A DNA stretch of 64,000 nt, taken from positions 62,001 to 126,000 of the forward strand of contig NZ_JAHHDX010000084.1 in NCBI RefSeq assembly GCF_018619335.1. The letters run 5' to 3'. This stretch comes from Alteromonas sp. ALT199 (lineage in GTDB: Bacteria > Pseudomonadota > Gammaproteobacteria > Enterobacterales > Alteromonadaceae). Of the stretch, positions 1 through 5,562 are shown piece after piece. Made by a program: the position numbers and the translations under genes. Within the stretch, counting starts at the first letter, position 1. Each line of letters begins with the position of its first letter. Below the pieces are notes generated by a model that searched no databases, had not been told where the DNA came from, and saw nothing but the letters and a program-made list of their open reading frames with translations.

Positions 1-2
1 AT

Positions 3-200
3 AATCCTTCTAAGGGCCGTTTTGTTCATCCGTGGCTCAACCATGGTATTACGCTTAGACATGCAGCGAGATTGCAATCTTTTCCTGACGAGTTTAATTT
101 TTATGGAAGTTCAACCGAGAAAGCGCGGCAAATTGGTAATGCAGTGCCACCATTACTCGGCAAAGTATTGATAAGTGATATATGTAGTAGATTGAACTAA
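3..200 (+). CDS. DNA cytosine-C5 methyltransferase, C-terminal end (5' truncated by window)
   Basis: An open frame enters from the left edge and ends at the TAA at 198-200, giving 65 residues. It contains the motif IX/X signature of the Dcm family: a 'LRHAARLQSFPDEF' segment (motif IX side) followed by 'RQIGNAVPPLL' (motif X, part of the SAM pocket), then a short C-terminal helix. The family transfers a methyl group from SAM to C5 of cytosine in DNA. The catalytic PCQ and ENV motifs and the target recognition domain lie outside the window, so its specificity cannot be judged. The next gene follows 49 bases later on the same strand, which suggests a shared operon with the GHKL ATPase and the receiver protein. 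Confidence 0.9.
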   Translation, partial: NPSKGRFVHPWLNHGITLRHAARLQSFPDEFNFYGSSTEKARQIGNAVPPLLGKVLISDICSRLN

Positions 201-249
201 ATAAAGTGCATACAATGTTAAGCACTTATTTAATAAATAACTATCTGAC

Positions 250-3200
250 ATGACTGAAAAAATAACAAAGAGATCTGTTTCGTTTAAGGCTCAAGCGCGA
301 ACGATAGACCATCTTGGTAAGGGGCAAATCGCGGATGCTCCAACGGCTGTCAGTGAGCTTTGGAAAAATTCATACGACGCTTATGCGCGGAACGTAGCAT
401 TGCATTTATTCGATGGCGATAACAAATGCGGATCAATAATTGATAATGGCTGCGGCATGACATATGACCAGCTTATAAATAGTTGGCTTACAGTTGGTAC
501 TGCTTCAAAAACTAAGAAAAAGTTACTTCCAGAAGAAGATAGATTTGGTCTTGATGACAGGTATACACAGGGTGAAAAAGGCATTGGTAGATTATCTACA
601 GCTTTTCTCGCGCCAGTAACCCTGATCGTAACAAAAAAAATGAACACTAAATTTTCGGCTGTTCTGATTGATTGGCGTTTATTTGAAAATACTTATCTAG
701 GCCTGAATGATATTAAAGTGCCTATGGAAGAGTTTGATAGCTTGAAACAATTGCCAGAAATATGCTCTGGCTTACAAAAAGAAATGCTTTCGAATCTTGC
801 TTTAGAGCCTAAAACAGAGGACGAAAAGCTTTTGCGTCGAATGTGGGAGCTATTCACTGTAGATGAAAAAGAAGCGTTCGAACTTCGCCACAATCCAACC
901 AATAATGACACCTTCGTCTCGACAGAAGATAAGGTTGAGGAACTATGCAATAATTTTATTTTTAATCCTAACTTCACTGATAGCTGGCAACCATTATTAG
1001 AAAAAGTTGAAGTACTAGATGGTTCGCAACATGGTACGGCATTGTACCTGTTAGATCTTGGAAGAGATTTAGAACTGCTAACTAATCGTGGAGATATGAG
1101 TAGAGACTCATCTGAATATCAAGAGGTTAAAAAAGACCTAGTAGACACTCTTCGAGCATTCGTTGATCCATTTAGCCGCAACCATCAAACTAAGAATGAA
1201 TTTTTATATGAAATCAAAGGGTTTGATTCGGATGGCTATTTATTAGGTGAACAAAACGAGATCCTTAATTATCAAGAAGTCTTCGGTTATGAAGAGTTTA
1301 AAGAGCTTGAGCATAAGGTTGAAGGAATAGTTGATGAAAAAGGTTGGTTCCGTGGAAGCATTACAGCTTTTGGAAAAGATTATTCAGATGTCGTTATTCC
1401 GTGCCGTTCTCCTGGTATGGAAGCTTTTACAAAGTCTGGACCCTTTGCTCTTAAGATTGGTACGTTTGAGATAGAGTTGTCTAAATCAACACATGAACCA
1501 GAGCATCACGCATTATTAAAAGAGCAAGCAGAAAAGTATGCAGGCTTTATGATTTTTCGCGATGGTCTTCGAGTTTTACCTTATGGACGGGCTAATAACG
1601 ACTTTTTCGAAATTGAAGAGCGACGAGGTAAAAACGCAGGTCGGTACCATTGGGCTACGCGTAGAATGTTTGGTCAAATCAAATTAGACCAAAAGGAAAA
1701 CAAGAGACTAGTAGATAAAGCTGGCCGAGAAGGGTTTGTTAAAAATCAAGCAGCAAGAGAGCTCAAAGCCTTAATGACTAATCTCTTGGTCCAATTAGCT
1801 GACAGTTATTTTGGTACTAAATCTGATGAACGAAAATCACTTTTAGAGCAATTATCTAAGGATAAAAAAAGGCAAAATAGAGCTCGTAGTTCGTCAGCTA
1901 GAATCAATAAACAAGTATTTGTTCAAGCATTGGAAACCAATCTTCCGAAACTTAATATCCAAGTTGAAAATGCTCGTAACGTTCATAAAGAGCTTGAAAA
2001 AGGCATAGAAGTTTCTCTGCATCATTTAGATGAACTAGCGGCCCAGATTGACAAACTAGAATCTCTTCGCCCCGAGCTGAAGACACCAAACAAACCTGCA
2101 AAATTAAGTGATTCACAAGAAGTACAGTATCGTAGCTACCGTGACCTTTTTGGGGAACTTAGCGAATTGCTGCAAACATGCCGTGAACGTTTGAACAAAA
2201 TTGAATCGCTTAGCCAGCAACGTAGCCCAATGGAGAGTGCACAAAATAAATATGACTCAAGTGACGCTGCTATTTCTAAGCAAATCAATCGTTATGCCAA
2301 AGCGATAGAAATGACGCTAGAGCGGCTTCAAGTCACTTGGAGACACGAAGTTCGAACAGATCGGGATACATATAAAAATCAGGCTATAAACATTTTAGAT
2401 GCTGTTACTAACTCCAGCGATACTGAATTTGTTCTCAATGAGCTTGACAAAGTGTATAGAGAGTTAGCCGATGATATTGCGACAAAATATGAAAACTTTC
2501 TATTTGCTATAGACAAGTTGGAACGGGGTATAGATATTGAATCCGCATTCAATCTTGCTGAAGAGGAAAGAGAAAATGCTGAACAAGAAATCAACCAAAT
2601 ACGTAATCTGGCTCAACTAGGTATTAGTTTTGAAATTCTTGCACATGAGCTGAGTGCACAAGACAAGGCGGTTACTCGTTCTCTTAGCTCTATGAGTTCA
2701 GGAGCAAAAGAAGAAATTGGCTTTAAAAATGCTATGCGGGCACACAAGCAATTTACAGATTACTTGCGCTTTTTATCACCTCTTAAGCTATCAGGTTATC
2801 AAGTAAGAGATGATATATATGGTCGAGATATAGTTAAAAATATAACAAACTTTTTTACAGATCAGTTTGAAAAGCAAAATGTACATCTGAATATTAGTGA
2901 TTCATTTCAAAGAATGAAAATAGTCGACGTGCAATCTCGCATTATCCCAGTATTTATTAACTTAGTTAACAACGCTCTGTACTGGGTAGGAATGGCAGAA
3001 GGCGAACGCATAATTAAAATTGATATCATCAACGATTTGGTCGTTATAGCGAATAACGGGCCTGCAATAGATCCTGAGGATGTGAAAAATCTCTTCCAAC
3101 TCTTTTATAGCCGGCGCCCGACTGGGAACGGTGTAGGTCTATACCTTTCACGACAGAATTTAGCAGTTGCTCGTCATAGCATATGGTATGCAGAAAACCC

Positions 3201-3267
3201 AGAAGAAAAACTTATTAAGGATGGAGCGAATTTTGTTATTCAGTTTCGCGGAATGGAAGTAAGATAA
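250..3267 (+). CDS. Double GHKL ATPase: N-terminal MutL/Hsp90-like plus C-terminal histidine-kinase-like domain
   Basis: This 1005-residue protein has two Bergerat-fold ATP sites. The N-terminal one shows an N-box with E36 and N40, a G1 motif DNGCGM (65-70) and a G2 motif GEKGIG (108-113), as in Hsp90/MutL/MORC proteins. A long charged helical, probably coiled-coil stretch follows (about 520-800). An H-box-like 'AHEL' places a possible phospho-acceptor at H799. The C-terminal HATPase has an N-box 'LVNNAL', a degenerate G1 'NNGPAI' and a G2 'GNGVGLYLSRQ'. No membrane segment or signal peptide is visible, so it should be cytosolic. It sits just downstream of a DNA methyltransferase and its stop codon directly abuts the receiver gene, which fits a sensor-kinase/receiver pair in a phage-defence or restriction-linked locus. 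That role is inference. Base composition is clearly AT-richer than the neighbouring housekeeping genes. Confidence 0.85.
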   Translation: MTEKITKRSVSFKAQARTIDHLGKGQIADAPTAVSELWKNSYDAYARNVALHLFDGDNKCGSIIDNGCGMTYDQLINSWLTVGTASKTKKKLLPEEDRFGLDDRYTQGEKGIGRLSTAFLAPVTLIVTKKMNTKFSAVLIDWRLFENTYLGLNDIKVPMEEFDSLKQLPEICSGLQKEMLSNLALEPKTEDEKLLRRMWELFTVDEKEAFELRHNPTNNDTFVSTEDKVEELCNNFIFNPNFTDSWQPLLEKVEVLDGSQHGTALYLLDLGRDLELLTNRGDMSRDSSEYQEVKKDLVDTLRAFVDPFSRNHQTKNEFLYEIKGFDSDGYLLGEQNEILNYQEVFGYEEFKELEHKVEGIVDEKGWFRGSITAFGKDYSDVVIPCRSPGMEAFTKSGPFALKIGTFEIELSKSTHEPEHHALLKEQAEKYAGFMIFRDGLRVLPYGRANNDFFEIEERRGKNAGRYHWATRRMFGQIKLDQKENKRLVDKAGREGFVKNQAARELKALMTNLLVQLADSYFGTKSDERKSLLEQLSKDKKRQNRARSSSARINKQVFVQALETNLPKLNIQVENARNVHKELEKGIEVSLHHLDELAAQIDKLESLRPELKTPNKPAKLSDSQEVQYRSYRDLFGELSELLQTCRERLNKIESLSQQRSPMESAQNKYDSSDAAISKQINRYAKAIEMTLERLQVTWRHEVRTDRDTYKNQAINILDAVTNSSDTEFVLNELDKVYRELADDIATKYENFLFAIDKLERGIDIESAFNLAEEERENAEQEINQIRNLAQLGISFEILAHELSAQDKAVTRSLSSMSSGAKEEIGFKNAMRAHKQFTDYLRFLSPLKLSGYQVRDDIYGRDIVKNITNFFTDQFEKQNVHLNISDSFQRMKIVDVQSRIIPVFINLVNNALYWVGMAEGERIIKIDIINDLVVIANNGPAIDPEDVKNLFQLFYSRRPTGNGVGLYLSRQNLAVARHSIWYAENPEEKLIKDGANFVIQFRGMEVR

Positions 3268-5171
3268 ATGCCAGAGTTATATAGAAATAAAATTGTAGAA
3301 GCATTTCGTGACAATGCTATTCGATCGGTTTTACTTATTGATGATGAGTATTTGCCATTTGAAAACTTAGTTGCTTCGAGCAGTTCATTTCGCAATGAAT
3401 TAGAGGCTATTTCAGCTGATGTTAATCCCACTACACCAGATAAAGAAACAGTTTATCAAGCCAGACTAAGTAAGTTACAAACTTTGCTAACACAAGCAAG
3501 TAGCAATCTAATGAGATCGATGTCGCTAAAGAATTCGTTAGTTTCTTTCATGAAAAACGACTTATCTGTGATGTAGAAGATAGAACAGATAGTTTAGATA
3601 AAGATAAGGTTCGGAAGAGTGACCTAATTGTTTTAGATTATTATTTAAAAACAGATGTGCAGAATAATCCTGCAGAGTACTCTTTAAGACTCATCGATGA
3701 ACTAAGTGAAAGTAAACACATGAATATCGTTGTTGTTTACACTAAAGAGAACCTTGATGACGTATGGTTTGAAGTTGCGGCTACGTTGCGTGGCAACCAT
3801 GACAATAATGCGGAAGCTTTTTATTCTGAGCCTTCACTAAACAGAGAATGGCAAACTAACCATGCTGAATGGAAAGAAGAATGGCAGTTAATAGTCTCAA
3901 AAGATATACATGAGCAGTTCCTAAAATCAGAGCATGTTATTGAGCAACTGACTGAAGATTTAAGAAATGCATGCAATGATCAAAATTATGAACTACCGAA
4001 TGTAGAACATGTAGAATGGCTCTTAGAGCAAGACATTCGCCCATATAATAAAAATAATTGCCCTATTTCTTCGTTTGAAATTCATGGTAAACGACAAAAG
4101 TGGCTGCAAGCTGGTGATGTATTTGTTGTCTTTTGTAGCAAAGACACTGGCGAAGGTGAGCAAAAACGAGATACAACCCCGGAAGAAGTATGGGAACTAA
4201 TTCAGGAAACCTTGATTGATTGGTATCCTAGCTTTTATCGTGTTGTTACATCGGAATTACAAAATCAAGTCGAAGATGCCAACCTCTCAATGGAAAAAGT
4301 ATTGGCAGCTGGAGATACCGAACAGATAGCAGCGTTGTGGGGGGTTTTAAGAGTAGAAGACTCTCAAAGAGAACAAGCAAGTAAGGAGTTATTAAACAAC
4401 TTGCTCAATGATGTTGTTGATAAGATCCAAAATAGCTCAGAGCTGCTCAGATTTATAAAAGAAACAGCTAATTGCGTTGATGAGAACTTACCACAATATA
4501 CAAGCCCAGATACTAATCAAGGCAAGTATGGTCAATATTTAAAAGACATTGTTAAATCAGCAGGAAAGAACCTTAAAGTTCCAATTGAAAATGTAACGGA
4601 TGAATTTCGAGGTGATGTTTTGCATGCGTTTAATGAGCAGCTGAGTATAGAAAAAGAACTTCCAGATCATATTTCTACTGGTGCGGTGCTTAAAGATATT
4701 GATGACAATGTATATTACCTTTGTATTGCGCCAAGTTGTAATACGGTCCCAAAACAAATGACTGGTGAGATAACAAAGAGGATGAAGCCGCACAGACCTA
4801 TGCGTTTCATTAGATTGGCTGATGTTACAAACAAAAAACTCGACCACCTAAGAAAAGCACATAGGTCACATGTAATATTTCTAAGTGATGAAGGTACCAG
4901 GCTTGCTCTTAATGTATATGAAAGTGATGACTCACCAACCATTGAGCAAGGTGTTGTTGTCAGTCATGACGATGAATATATAGCTCTAGGTAAATCGAAA
5001 GATGTACAGTTCTTGGTTACTAATCCTGAGACTCTTGCCTTAGAAGTGGCAACTCGAAAGTTTAAACTCGTAGCTAAGCTTCGCCCTGCGTTTGCATCTC
5101 GATACCAAAATTATCAAATACAATATGAAGCCCGTATAGGGGTGGATTTAGTAAGTGCTAATATGAAATGA
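3268..5171 (+). pseudogene. Receiver-domain (response-regulator-like) protein, frameshifted
   Basis: Two reading frames together make one protein. The first (3268-3576, 102 residues, ATG directly after the upstream stop) carries the acidic pair of a CheY-like receiver (D25-D26 in 'VLLIDDEY'). The second frame is open from 3504 to 5171 and carries the expected phospho-acceptor Asp ('LIVLDYY', codon 3636-3638) and the beta-4 strand 'NIVVVYTKE'. The receiver fold is therefore cut between beta-1 and beta-3 by a -1 shift between 3504 and 3576, just after an in-frame TAG at 3501. The second frame has no ATG before the phospho-Asp; its first usable start is a GTG at 3657, beyond it. After the receiver come about 400 residues I do not recognise, without a DNA-binding HTH I can see. 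It is either a decayed gene, a sequencing indel or a recoded gene. Pairing with the upstream HK-like ATPase is inferred from adjacency. Confidence 0.7.
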
Positions 5172-5217
5172 AATAAATAATTCATCGCCACTGACTGCTT
5201 AGGCGCCTCTGTGTTAG

Positions 5218-5427
5218 ATAAACAAGCGACTAAAAAGTGTTCATGAACAATTCAAAGTCGAAGTAATAAAAAAGTTACCGACACTGACCTTCTTTATTAC
5301 TTTCGCTAAATGTTTAGGGGCATCTAGTCATAACCTTTATGCTTGGATTAAACGCTACGGTTTTGGCTCAGAATCGCATCCTCATAAATCAGTGAAGTCT
5401 GCCAAAATAAGTTATTGTAGAAAGTGA
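5218..5427 (+). pseudogene. IS3-family transposase OrfA fragment (fossil)
   Basis: A 69-codon frame without an ATG start is open from 5218 to the TGA at 5425. Its translation has the features of the N-terminal HTH of IS3-type OrfA: 'EQFKVEVIKK' followed by 'LGASSHNLYAWIKRYG'. Between them the usual 'VADVAKR' helix is changed to 'FFITFAKC', and after the HTH the sequence leaves the family, so it lacks the leucine-zipper part and the OrfB integrase. I see no flanking inverted repeats. It marks the right edge of the AT-rich accessory island and points to past mobile-element activity. Confidence 0.65.
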
Positions 5428-5562
5428 CATGTTTGCGCATGTCATTTGCTTAAGGCACGCCTTTAAAGTTAGGAAAATAGTTTAGTAGCTATTCAAGGAA
5501 ACGGGTTTTGCCTATTACATTGTCACTAATTATTCTTACAACCCCCTTTGGCTTAGGTGCGT

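What the first reader, a model, noticed from the sequence alone, without database searches (positions are those of the whole stretch)
250..3267. Two-GHKL protein with a histidine-kinase-like half beside a DNA methyltransferase
One protein carries an Hsp90/MutL-type ATPase at the front and a kinase-like ATPase with an H-box-like AHEL (H799) at the back. It is wedged between a cytosine methyltransferase and a receiver-domain gene. Seen: the motifs and order. Known: GHKL proteins occur with Dcm, Vsr and Z1 proteins in predicted restriction-type loci. Inferred: a sensing ATPase that signals by phosphotransfer in anti-phage defence.
Basis: partly seen in the sequence, partly recalled or inferred. 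Interest (0 to 1): 0.6.

Follow-up and report, generated by a model that had tools for sequence, protein, structure and literature searches.

The report
Methylase-linked MORC/histidine-kinase phosphorelay island
A bacterial DNA-methylation gene travels together with a soluble sensor kinase and its partner switch protein, a trio already described from genome comparisons in 2021 whose job I found no test of, and in this genome the switch gene is interrupted by a frameshift.

Summary
The protein at 250-3267 (1005 aa) has a MORC-like ATPase half and a histidine-kinase half with H799 in a true H-box, between a C5 cytosine methylase and a receiver gene. [quoted passage not shown] a 2021 paper (PMC8011034) already describes this architecture, its receiver partner and the methylase/Vsr neighbourhood. 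It is a new member of a known, apparently untested kind. Added here: (1) H799 is conserved in 83 of 83 aligned proteins, the receiver active site (D, D, D, T, K) in 78-82 of 82 partners; (2) the receiver gene is directly downstream in 82 of 82 loci, a C5 methylase within 5 kb in 80; (3) kinase and receiver co-diverge (rho 0.88), the methylase less (0.40); (4) the locus is a 7.27-kb insertion absent at that site from the three relatives examined; (5) the window's receiver gene carries one frameshift; (6) a shorter sister form without HEF_HK match keeps methylase, two-ATPase kinase and receiver with the same unnamed output domain (5 loci, 2 of them the starting ones). No nuclease partner recurs, so that output domain is probably the effector. 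Phosphotransfer is well supported; anti-phage defence is inferred.

The parts
1..200 (+). 3' end of the C5 cytosine DNA methyltransferase gene (392 aa; the gene begins 979 bases before the window, L005:17022-18200)
   Evidence: PF00145 1.3e-66; motifs GPPCQ, ENV, QIGNA present; stop at 198-200
250..3267 (+). Two-ATPase (paraMORC-like + histidine kinase) protein, 1005 aa
343..687 (+). N-terminal GHKL ATPase domain HATPase_c_3 (residues 32-146); with the following S5-like part (to about residue 525, K490 invariant) it matches MORC3
   Evidence: PF13589 2.5e-14; MORC3 5ix2_B Z 17.8, 329 residues, rmsd 4.0; E36, N40, D43, D65, K490 83 of 83
1825..2523 (+). long coiled-coil linker (helices between residues 526 and 758)
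   Evidence: predicted structure
2614..2787 (+). HEF_HK dimerisation/phosphoacceptor helices (residues 789-846); H799 codon 2644-2646
   Evidence: PF19191; H799 in helix 763-813 of the model; 83 of 83 His
2932..3246 (+). C-terminal kinase ATPase domain HATPase_c (residues 895-999), N904/N908, G937, G959/G961/G963
   Evidence: PF02518 7.9e-15; ThkA 3a0t Z 17.8
3268..5171 (+). Response_reg_2 receiver + output-domain gene, interrupted by one frameshift (ORFs 3268-3576 and 3657-5171). Active-site codons: D-D 3340-3345, phospho-acceptor D 3636-3638, T 3741-3743, K 4140-4142
   Evidence: PF19192 with one stop inside, 63.8 bits; frame mapping; codons checked
4599..5165 (+). conserved unnamed output domain of the receiver protein (TG ... 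C..P.C[D/N] ... RIGVD)
   Evidence: profile A8 match 4.2e-51; alignment
5236..5424 (+). remnant resembling a transposase HTH (IS3-type OrfA-like, recalled) near the right end of the insertion
   Evidence: PF01527 0.0061, below cut-off
1..5561 (.). right-hand part of an insertion of about 7.27 kb (contig C102:60296-67561) absent at that site from the three relatives examined; CGTTT at both ends
   Evidence: clean empty sites in L123 and L125; other DNA at the place in L124

Best explanation
It is a mobile, methylase-linked cytoplasmic two-component system. The MORC-like front half is an ATP-gated dimeric sensor that engages DNA or a DNA-bound complex. Its closure, passed through the coiled coil, lets the C-terminal kinase domain phosphorylate H799. 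The phosphate goes to the invariant Asp of the downstream receiver protein and switches its C-terminal output domain, which is the effector or controls it. The cytosine methylase supplies the self mark that keeps the sensor quiet on host DNA. Shown here: the domains, predicted folds, active-site conservation, gene order, co-divergence and horizontal acquisition. Inferred: phosphotransfer itself, DNA as the signal, the methyl mark as the discriminator, and a role in defence against foreign DNA. In this genome the relay is probably off, because the receiver gene is frameshifted (or the assembly is wrong there).
For: Kinase half folds as DHp-CA (HK853 6rgy_B Z 16.6 over 216 residues, rmsd 6.1, model 778-1002) and front half as MORC3 (5ix2_B Z 17.8, 329 residues, rmsd 4.0). 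H799 83/83, E800 81/83 (2 Asp), N904, N908, G937, G959, G961, G963 83/83. Partner folds as a receiver (VbrR 7e90_B Z 11.5, 115 residues, rmsd 2.6) with D25 82/82, D26 78/82, D124 82/82, T160 80/82, K293 81/82. Receiver gene within 60 bp or overlapping in 82/82, C5 methylase within 5 kb 80/82, directly upstream on the same strand 59/82, Vsr within 5 kb 30/82. Kinase-receiver distance correlation 0.88 against 0.40 for kinase-methylase over 77 loci (0.93 and 0.54 over the 60 with adjacent methylase). Matches spanning most of the 1005 aa in only 5 of 59 same-genus genomes, at 100, 38, 36, 28 and 25% identity, while the nearest relative is a Vibrio at 83%; empty sites. Same trio in a compact form.
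Against: My searches found no phosphotransfer or phage assay for any member. HEF_HK scores slightly under its Pfam cut-off in the single-protein scan. The kinase model has pTM 0.59 with weak stretches just after the phospho-His helices, and Foldseek alone found nothing at E <= 0.001 for the receiver model, whose receiver fold rests on VIA-align and Pfam. The G1-box Asp is Asn at N935 in this protein (15 of 83 have Asn), though ThkA has Asn there too. The output domain has no recognised fold or family, so the effector step is a guess. Defence-type neighbours are only modestly more frequent near the locus than far from it. 485 of 5426 E. coli genomes carry an IS3 junction that leaves the kinase without its MORC-like half, so that half is not always kept.
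Confidence: 0.6

Rival explanations
1. The pair is an ordinary regulatory two-component system that sets expression of the methylase or of other host genes according to DNA or nucleotide state, without restricting anything.
For: HK/RR pair is complete and co-diverges; no conserved nuclease partner (45 of 63 other same-strand neighbours scanned; no Pfam family in more than 3 of the 45, HNH_2 in 3); PMC8011034 itself speculates about signalling that controls R-M systems.
Against: No DNA-binding output family was found in the 52 of 82 receiver proteins scanned; patchy distribution, insertion at a clean site, and copies in proviral contigs or beside an integrase gene fit a mobile conflict system better than a housekeeping regulator.
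Confidence: 0.22
2. The protein is mainly a restriction-type ATPase like the BbrUII/HgiDII enzymes; the histidine-kinase half is a second ATPase or dimer clamp and no phosphate is passed.
For: NCBIfam BbrUII/HgiDII model matches residues 17-212 (8.9e-18) and PADLOC REase_II residues 16-141 (5e-13); C5 methylase neighbour.
Against: The NCBIfam match is 64 bits against a cut-off of 550 and covers only the ATPase core; an invariant H-box His and an invariant receiver Asp next door are hard to explain without phosphotransfer.
Confidence: 0.1
3. A methylation-directed repair or epigenetic maintenance module (MutL-like ATPase plus Vsr plus methylase) that limits damage from 5-methylcytosine deamination.
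For: Vsr within 5 kb in 30 of 82 loci; MORC/MutL-like front half.
Against: No Vsr found within 5 kb in 52 of 82; Vsr accompanies many cytosine methylases anyway (recalled); does not explain the kinase and receiver.
Confidence: 0.05
4. In this genome the locus is a decaying remnant with no present function (compatible with the main reading for intact relatives).
For: Receiver gene frameshifted; transposase-like remnant and unidentified short ORFs at the island ends.
Against: Methylase and kinase genes are intact; the remaining receiver sequence is 72% identical to the intact orthologue with no second lesion seen; the assembly is a 178-contig draft, so an assembly error is possible.
Confidence: 0.3

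Closest known systems
HEF_HK (PF19191) / Response_reg_2 (PF19192) two-component-like pair, group 1 architecture (Bellieny-Rabelo et al. 2021, PMC8011034)
   Same: Same domain order HATPase_c_3 + HEF_HK + HATPase_c, adjacent Response_reg_2 gene, C5 methylase upstream, Vsr in a subset
   Different: Here the receiver gene is frameshifted; in the parts I read (1-5 of 7, no supplements) the paper does not report output-domain conservation, the methylase's looser co-divergence, an empty site or the compact form
paraMORC / prokaryotic MORC ATPases of R-M loci (Iyer et al. 2008, PMC2292703)
   Same: GHKL plus S5-like ATPase half with MORC fold, beside Dcm-type methylase and Vsr
   Different: No helicase in this island and no recurring nuclease partner; a histidine-kinase half and a receiver partner are added ('receiver' does not occur in that paper's text)
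BbrUII/HgiDII restriction enzymes (NF050001)
   Same: Shared N-terminal ATPase core
   Different: Far below the family cut-off; the match ends at residue 212
VcSduA, GHKL-type Shedu (likened to paraMORC3; PMC12137116)
   Same: N-terminal GHKL ATPase proposed to control an effector
   Different: VcSduA carries a PD-(D/E)XK nuclease in the same chain; this system has a separate receiver protein
Detocs, a two-component phage-defence system (recalled, not tested)
   Same: Histidine kinase and receiver used in defence
   Different: Recalled to use a receiver-linked enzyme effector; no methylase and no MORC-like half

Membership tests
HEF_HK/Response_reg_2 pair (PMC8011034) | HATPase_c_3 + HEF_HK + HATPase_c in one protein | tested here: met
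   HEF_HK 23.0 bits, just under the cut-off of 24.1; 27.3 bits, over the cut-off; two ATPase domains well over theirs
HEF_HK/Response_reg_2 pair (PMC8011034) | Adjacent Response_reg_2 gene | tested here: met
   (63.8 bits across the frameshift); 52 of 52 homologous partners scanned (of 82) match PF19192
HEF_HK/Response_reg_2 pair (PMC8011034) | C5 methylase neighbour | tested here: met
Two-component system | H-box His and N, G1, F, G2 boxes in a DHp-CA fold | tested here: met
   the G1 Asp is Asn here
Two-component system | Receiver fold with acid pair, phospho-acceptor Asp, Thr/Ser and Lys | tested here: met
   on the intact orthologue L023; same residues in the window on both sides of the frameshift
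Two-component system | Autophosphorylation and phosphotransfer | not testable with these tools
   needs purified proteins
paraMORC/MORC ATPases | GHKL plus S5 ATPase module with MORC-like fold and an R-M neighbourhood | tested here: met
   which of paraMORC1-5 it is, if any, was not tested
BbrUII/HgiDII restriction enzymes | Whole-length family match over the cut-off | tested here: not met
   64.2 bits against 550, residues 17-212 only
   The listed non-antisense ORFs of 100 aa or more in the island are the methylase, the kinase and the receiver pieces; among 45 scanned neighbours of homologues Z1 and DUF4420 match 1 each
Known anti-phage systems (PADLOC 2023) | Kinase or receiver matches a specific model over its length | tested here: not met
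   Only partial hits: REase_II 46 bits over residues 16-141, JetC and LmuB over the coiled coil; 2 of 52 receivers with one marginal hit each
Anti-phage defence system | Protects against phage | not testable with these tools
   needs plaque assays

The most novel reading that the evidence does not exclude
This is a restriction-like immune system without a dedicated nuclease: a methylase marks self, a MORC-type DNA clamp reads unmarked DNA, and a His-to-Asp phosphorelay fires a previously unnamed effector domain (TG...C..P.CD...R.G) that defines the system across at least two receiver types, the long HEF_HK form and a compact form not matched by HEF_HK or Response_reg_2.
Probability: 0.25. Interest if true: 0.72.

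Novelty: new member of a known kind. Interest (0 to 1): 0.36.

Why it matters
It joins three things usually kept apart: DNA methylation, MORC-type ATPases and two-component phosphotransfer. If the inferred mechanism holds, bacteria would judge DNA as self or foreign through a phosphorelay, and bacterial MORC relatives, close in fold to the eukaryotic MORC chromatin proteins, would have a measurable output (receiver phosphorylation). The pair also occurs in about a tenth of complete E. coli genomes (560 of 5426), though there mostly with the kinase's front half missing. The single locus is not itself surprising, because the family was published in 2021; the open question is what the receiver's output domain does.

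Tried and rejected
Defence-island test: 75 of 211 proteins within 3 kb and 75 of 248 beyond 5.5 kb, drawn at random from 53 loci, were scanned with PADLOC at 1e-15. About 14 different system labels appeared near and about 6 far, each family in one protein. This is suggestive only; it was not counted per protein and not tested statistically.

Output-domain identification: Pfam, PADLOC and NCBIfam on 52 of the 82 receivers, PDB sequences, Foldseek on PDB and viral models (nothing at E <= 0.001 in either) and VIA-align gave only the receiver domain or scattered weak hits. The searches used the whole chain, so a known fold in the output half is not excluded.

Programmed frameshifting of the receiver gene: judged unlikely, since the best receiver ORF in each of 82 homologous loci is a single frame of 518-698 aa. 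PMC8011034 mentions a split receiver gene in one Pectobacterium assembly and ascribes it to misassembly or gene-prediction error.

Literature: nine searches of open-licence papers only. PMC8011034 and PMC10663231 alone hold the Pfam names (the latter seen in the listing only). No experimental work on the pair and no description of the compact form came up. PMC8011034: parts 1-5 of 7 read. PMC2292703, PMC12137116, PMC12839542 and PMC7159879: passages only. Other papers: listings only.

Plasmids and phages: the kinase has matches in 3 of 72,556 plasmid records (E <= 1e-40) and 0 of 50,697 phage records (E <= 1e-20), so it is neither plasmid- nor phage-typical there.

Rows dropped or not followed: L019 (same contig as L061) was left out of the counts; L018 and L020-L022 (other HEF_HK hits) were not counted, because L018 is a divergent form and the others show no such locus in the stretch read; the tool kept the best 80 of 195 relatives. 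Of 63 same-strand neighbours, 45 were scanned, and 25 of the 50 families found were shown. In one search, the weak or fragmentary hits in G129, G218 and G219, and the one in G332, were not resolved. Of 29 viral-collection loci, 8 were read. In one search an automatic alignment failed to place the compact form's H-box; searches show it. The E. coli search with a Citrobacter locus gave only short matches.

Full report
What is there. The window is bases 62001-126000 of one contig of a 4.63-Mb, 178-contig genome. The ORF at 250-3267 is intact, 1005 aa. Pfam finds HATPase_c_3 (residues 32-146), HEF_HK (789-846) and HATPase_c (895-999). Upstream lies a 392-aa C5 cytosine methylase ending at window position 200. 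Downstream lies a receiver gene whose two pieces both align to Response_reg_2 (0.13 and 1.6e-6) and which the genome scan reads as one family match with a stop inside (63.8 bits). The families are rare: HEF_HK in 8 of 369 and Response_reg_2 in 5 of 369 genomes of the class.

Prior knowledge. [quoted passage not shown] parts 1-5 of 7 read). That paper reports 91.6% linkage of the two gene families over 644 regions, the same three-domain architecture in 174 of 222 proteins, frequent C5 methylases upstream, Vsr genes in 20 genera, and proposes a two-component-like system tied to R-M systems and paraMORC ATPases.

Fold. AlphaFold2 with an alignment of 39 sequences (mean pLDDT 81.5, pTM 0.59, weak stretches among them 842-850) puts H799 in a long helix (763-813) followed by a second helix (823-842) and a kinase ATPase domain. 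VIA-align matches residues 778-1002 to HK853 (6rgy_B, Z 16.6, 216 residues, rmsd 6.1), the ATPase domain alone to ThkA (3a0t, Z 17.8, 143 residues, rmsd 2.3) and residues 15-528 to MORC3 (5ix2_B, Z 17.8, 329 residues, rmsd 4.0). A profile of the family aligns H799 with the H-box His of ThkA and of a FixL chimaera. The intact Vibrio orthologue of the receiver protein (L023; mean pLDDT 86, pTM 0.81) has a receiver fold spread over residues 16-320 (VbrR 7e90_B, Z 11.5, 115 residues, rmsd 2.6), although Foldseek alone gave no match at E <= 0.001.

Conservation. One scan of species genomes gave 80 loci (the best 80 of 195 relatives); with two more from whole genomes this makes 82, or 83 kinases with the window's own. 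H799 is His in 83 of 83, E800 Glu in 81 (2 Asp); front-half residues E36, N40, D43, D65 and K490 are invariant; in the kinase domain N904, N908, G937, G959, G961 and G963 are invariant, while the G1-box Asp is Asn in 15 of 83 including the window. Receivers (82): D25 82, D26 78, D124 (phospho-acceptor, end of strand 3 of the model) 82, T160 80, K293 81. The window keeps all five, on the two sides of the frameshift.

Neighbourhood. The receiver gene starts within 60 bp of, or overlaps, the kinase gene in 82 of 82; a C5 methylase lies within 5 kb in 80 of 82 (misses L043 and L079, on contigs of 13 and 16 kb), directly upstream on the same strand in 59; Vsr lies within 5 kb in 30. Of 63 other same-strand neighbours, 45 were scanned: HNH_2 in 3, and no family in more than 3. 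Over 77 loci, pairwise distances of kinase and receiver correlate at 0.88, kinase and methylase at 0.40; no permutation of 500 reached either. Over the 60 loci with an adjacent methylase the values are 0.93 and 0.54. So the pair is inherited as a unit and the methylase is exchanged more often; variable target-recognition parts of the methylase may lower its value.

Acquisition. Three same-genus genomes were compared at this site. In two (L123, L125) the flanks meet with nothing between them; the third (L124) has other DNA there. The insertion is about 7,266 bp (contig 60296-67561), with CGTTT at both ends, which may be a target duplication or chance. Of 59 same-genus genomes (the own one included) 49 have some match, mostly to the kinase domain alone; 5 have one spanning most of the protein, four of these at 25-38% identity, against 83% for a Vibrio. 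The locus was most likely acquired horizontally. One proviral contig (L177) carries kinase, receiver and methylase next to an ORF that I read, from recall, as a phage late-control protein. In E. coli, 560 of 5426 complete genomes hold the pair; 485 carry an IS3 junction that leaves a 572-aa kinase without the front half. In the one region whose annotation I fetched, it lies between IS3 and an integrase-domain gene followed by a primase-helicase gene, which from recall resembles a P4-like satellite.

The frameshift. The first frame matches the intact orthologue from residue 1; another frame matches residues 68-635 at 72% identity. There is one lesion and the rest is well kept, so it is recent or an assembly error. 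The best receiver ORF in each of the 82 homologous loci is a single frame, so programmed frameshifting is unlikely. If real, the kinase here has lost its partner.

The output domain. Beyond the receiver fold, the partners share a C-terminal domain with conserved N457 (81 of 82), G473 (82), C487 (77), C492 (82), D493 (78; Asn in the window), R624 (82) and G626 (81). The 52 receivers scanned match no Pfam, PADLOC or NCBIfam family there beyond single weak hits. A profile of it found two shorter receiver proteins (E 9.9e-6 and 4.6e-5) in other genomes. Each lies beside a C5 methylase and a 724- or 737-aa protein with HATPase_c_3 and HATPase_c but no HEF_HK match; one of the two receivers matches PF00072 weakly (28.8 bits, cut-off 30.2), the other no family. 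A search with one of these kinases found full-length relatives in five of 369 genomes, the two starting loci and three more; all five have a C5 methylase and the short receiver, three have Vsr (the receiver of L185 runs to the contig end). All five kinases keep the H-box (A.LG...HE) and all five receivers the acceptor Asp and the TG...P.CD motif. The output domain, not the receiver type, looks like the common mark of this kind of locus. I found no description of this compact form.

How it most likely works. MORC-type ATPase modules dimerise on ATP and engage DNA (recalled for eukaryotic MORCs and MutL; MORC2-DNA structures are among the matches). Kinase domains of this fold phosphorylate an H-box His and pass the phosphate to a receiver Asp (established, recalled). 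The simplest reading is that the front half senses DNA state, the back half converts it into receiver phosphorylation, and the output domain acts; the methylase marks self. The kinase and receiver steps rest on fold and invariant residues; DNA sensing, the effector and self marking rest on association and on recalled relatives. I put 0.6 on this reading, 0.22 on a plain regulatory role.

Verdict. Interest is moderate; the open question is the effector domain.

Noticed in passing
   Followed up: partly
L143, L144, L183, L184, L185: Compact sister form: C5 methylase, 724-740-aa two-ATPase kinase, 362-383-aa receiver with the shared output domain, Vsr in three of five; the two kinases scanned with Pfam show no HEF_HK match.
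   Followed up: yes
window 5236-5424: Transposase HTH-like remnant (PF01527, 0.0061, below cut-off) between the receiver gene and the right end of the insertion.
   Followed up: partly
L005:16522-16952: Two short minus-strand ORFs at the left end of the insertion, without Pfam match, that look like pieces of one decayed gene.
   Followed up: no
E. coli chromosomes, for example NZ_LR782232.1:1440524-1443992: 560 of 5426 E. coli genomes carry the pair; 485 have an IS3 junction that removes the kinase's N-terminal ATPase half; in the annotated example an integrase-domain gene and a primase-helicase gene follow.
   Followed up: partly
L177:147-7717: A proviral contig carries kinase, receiver and methylase beside what looks like a phage late-control gene (label recalled), that is, a possibly prophage-borne copy.
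   Followed up: no
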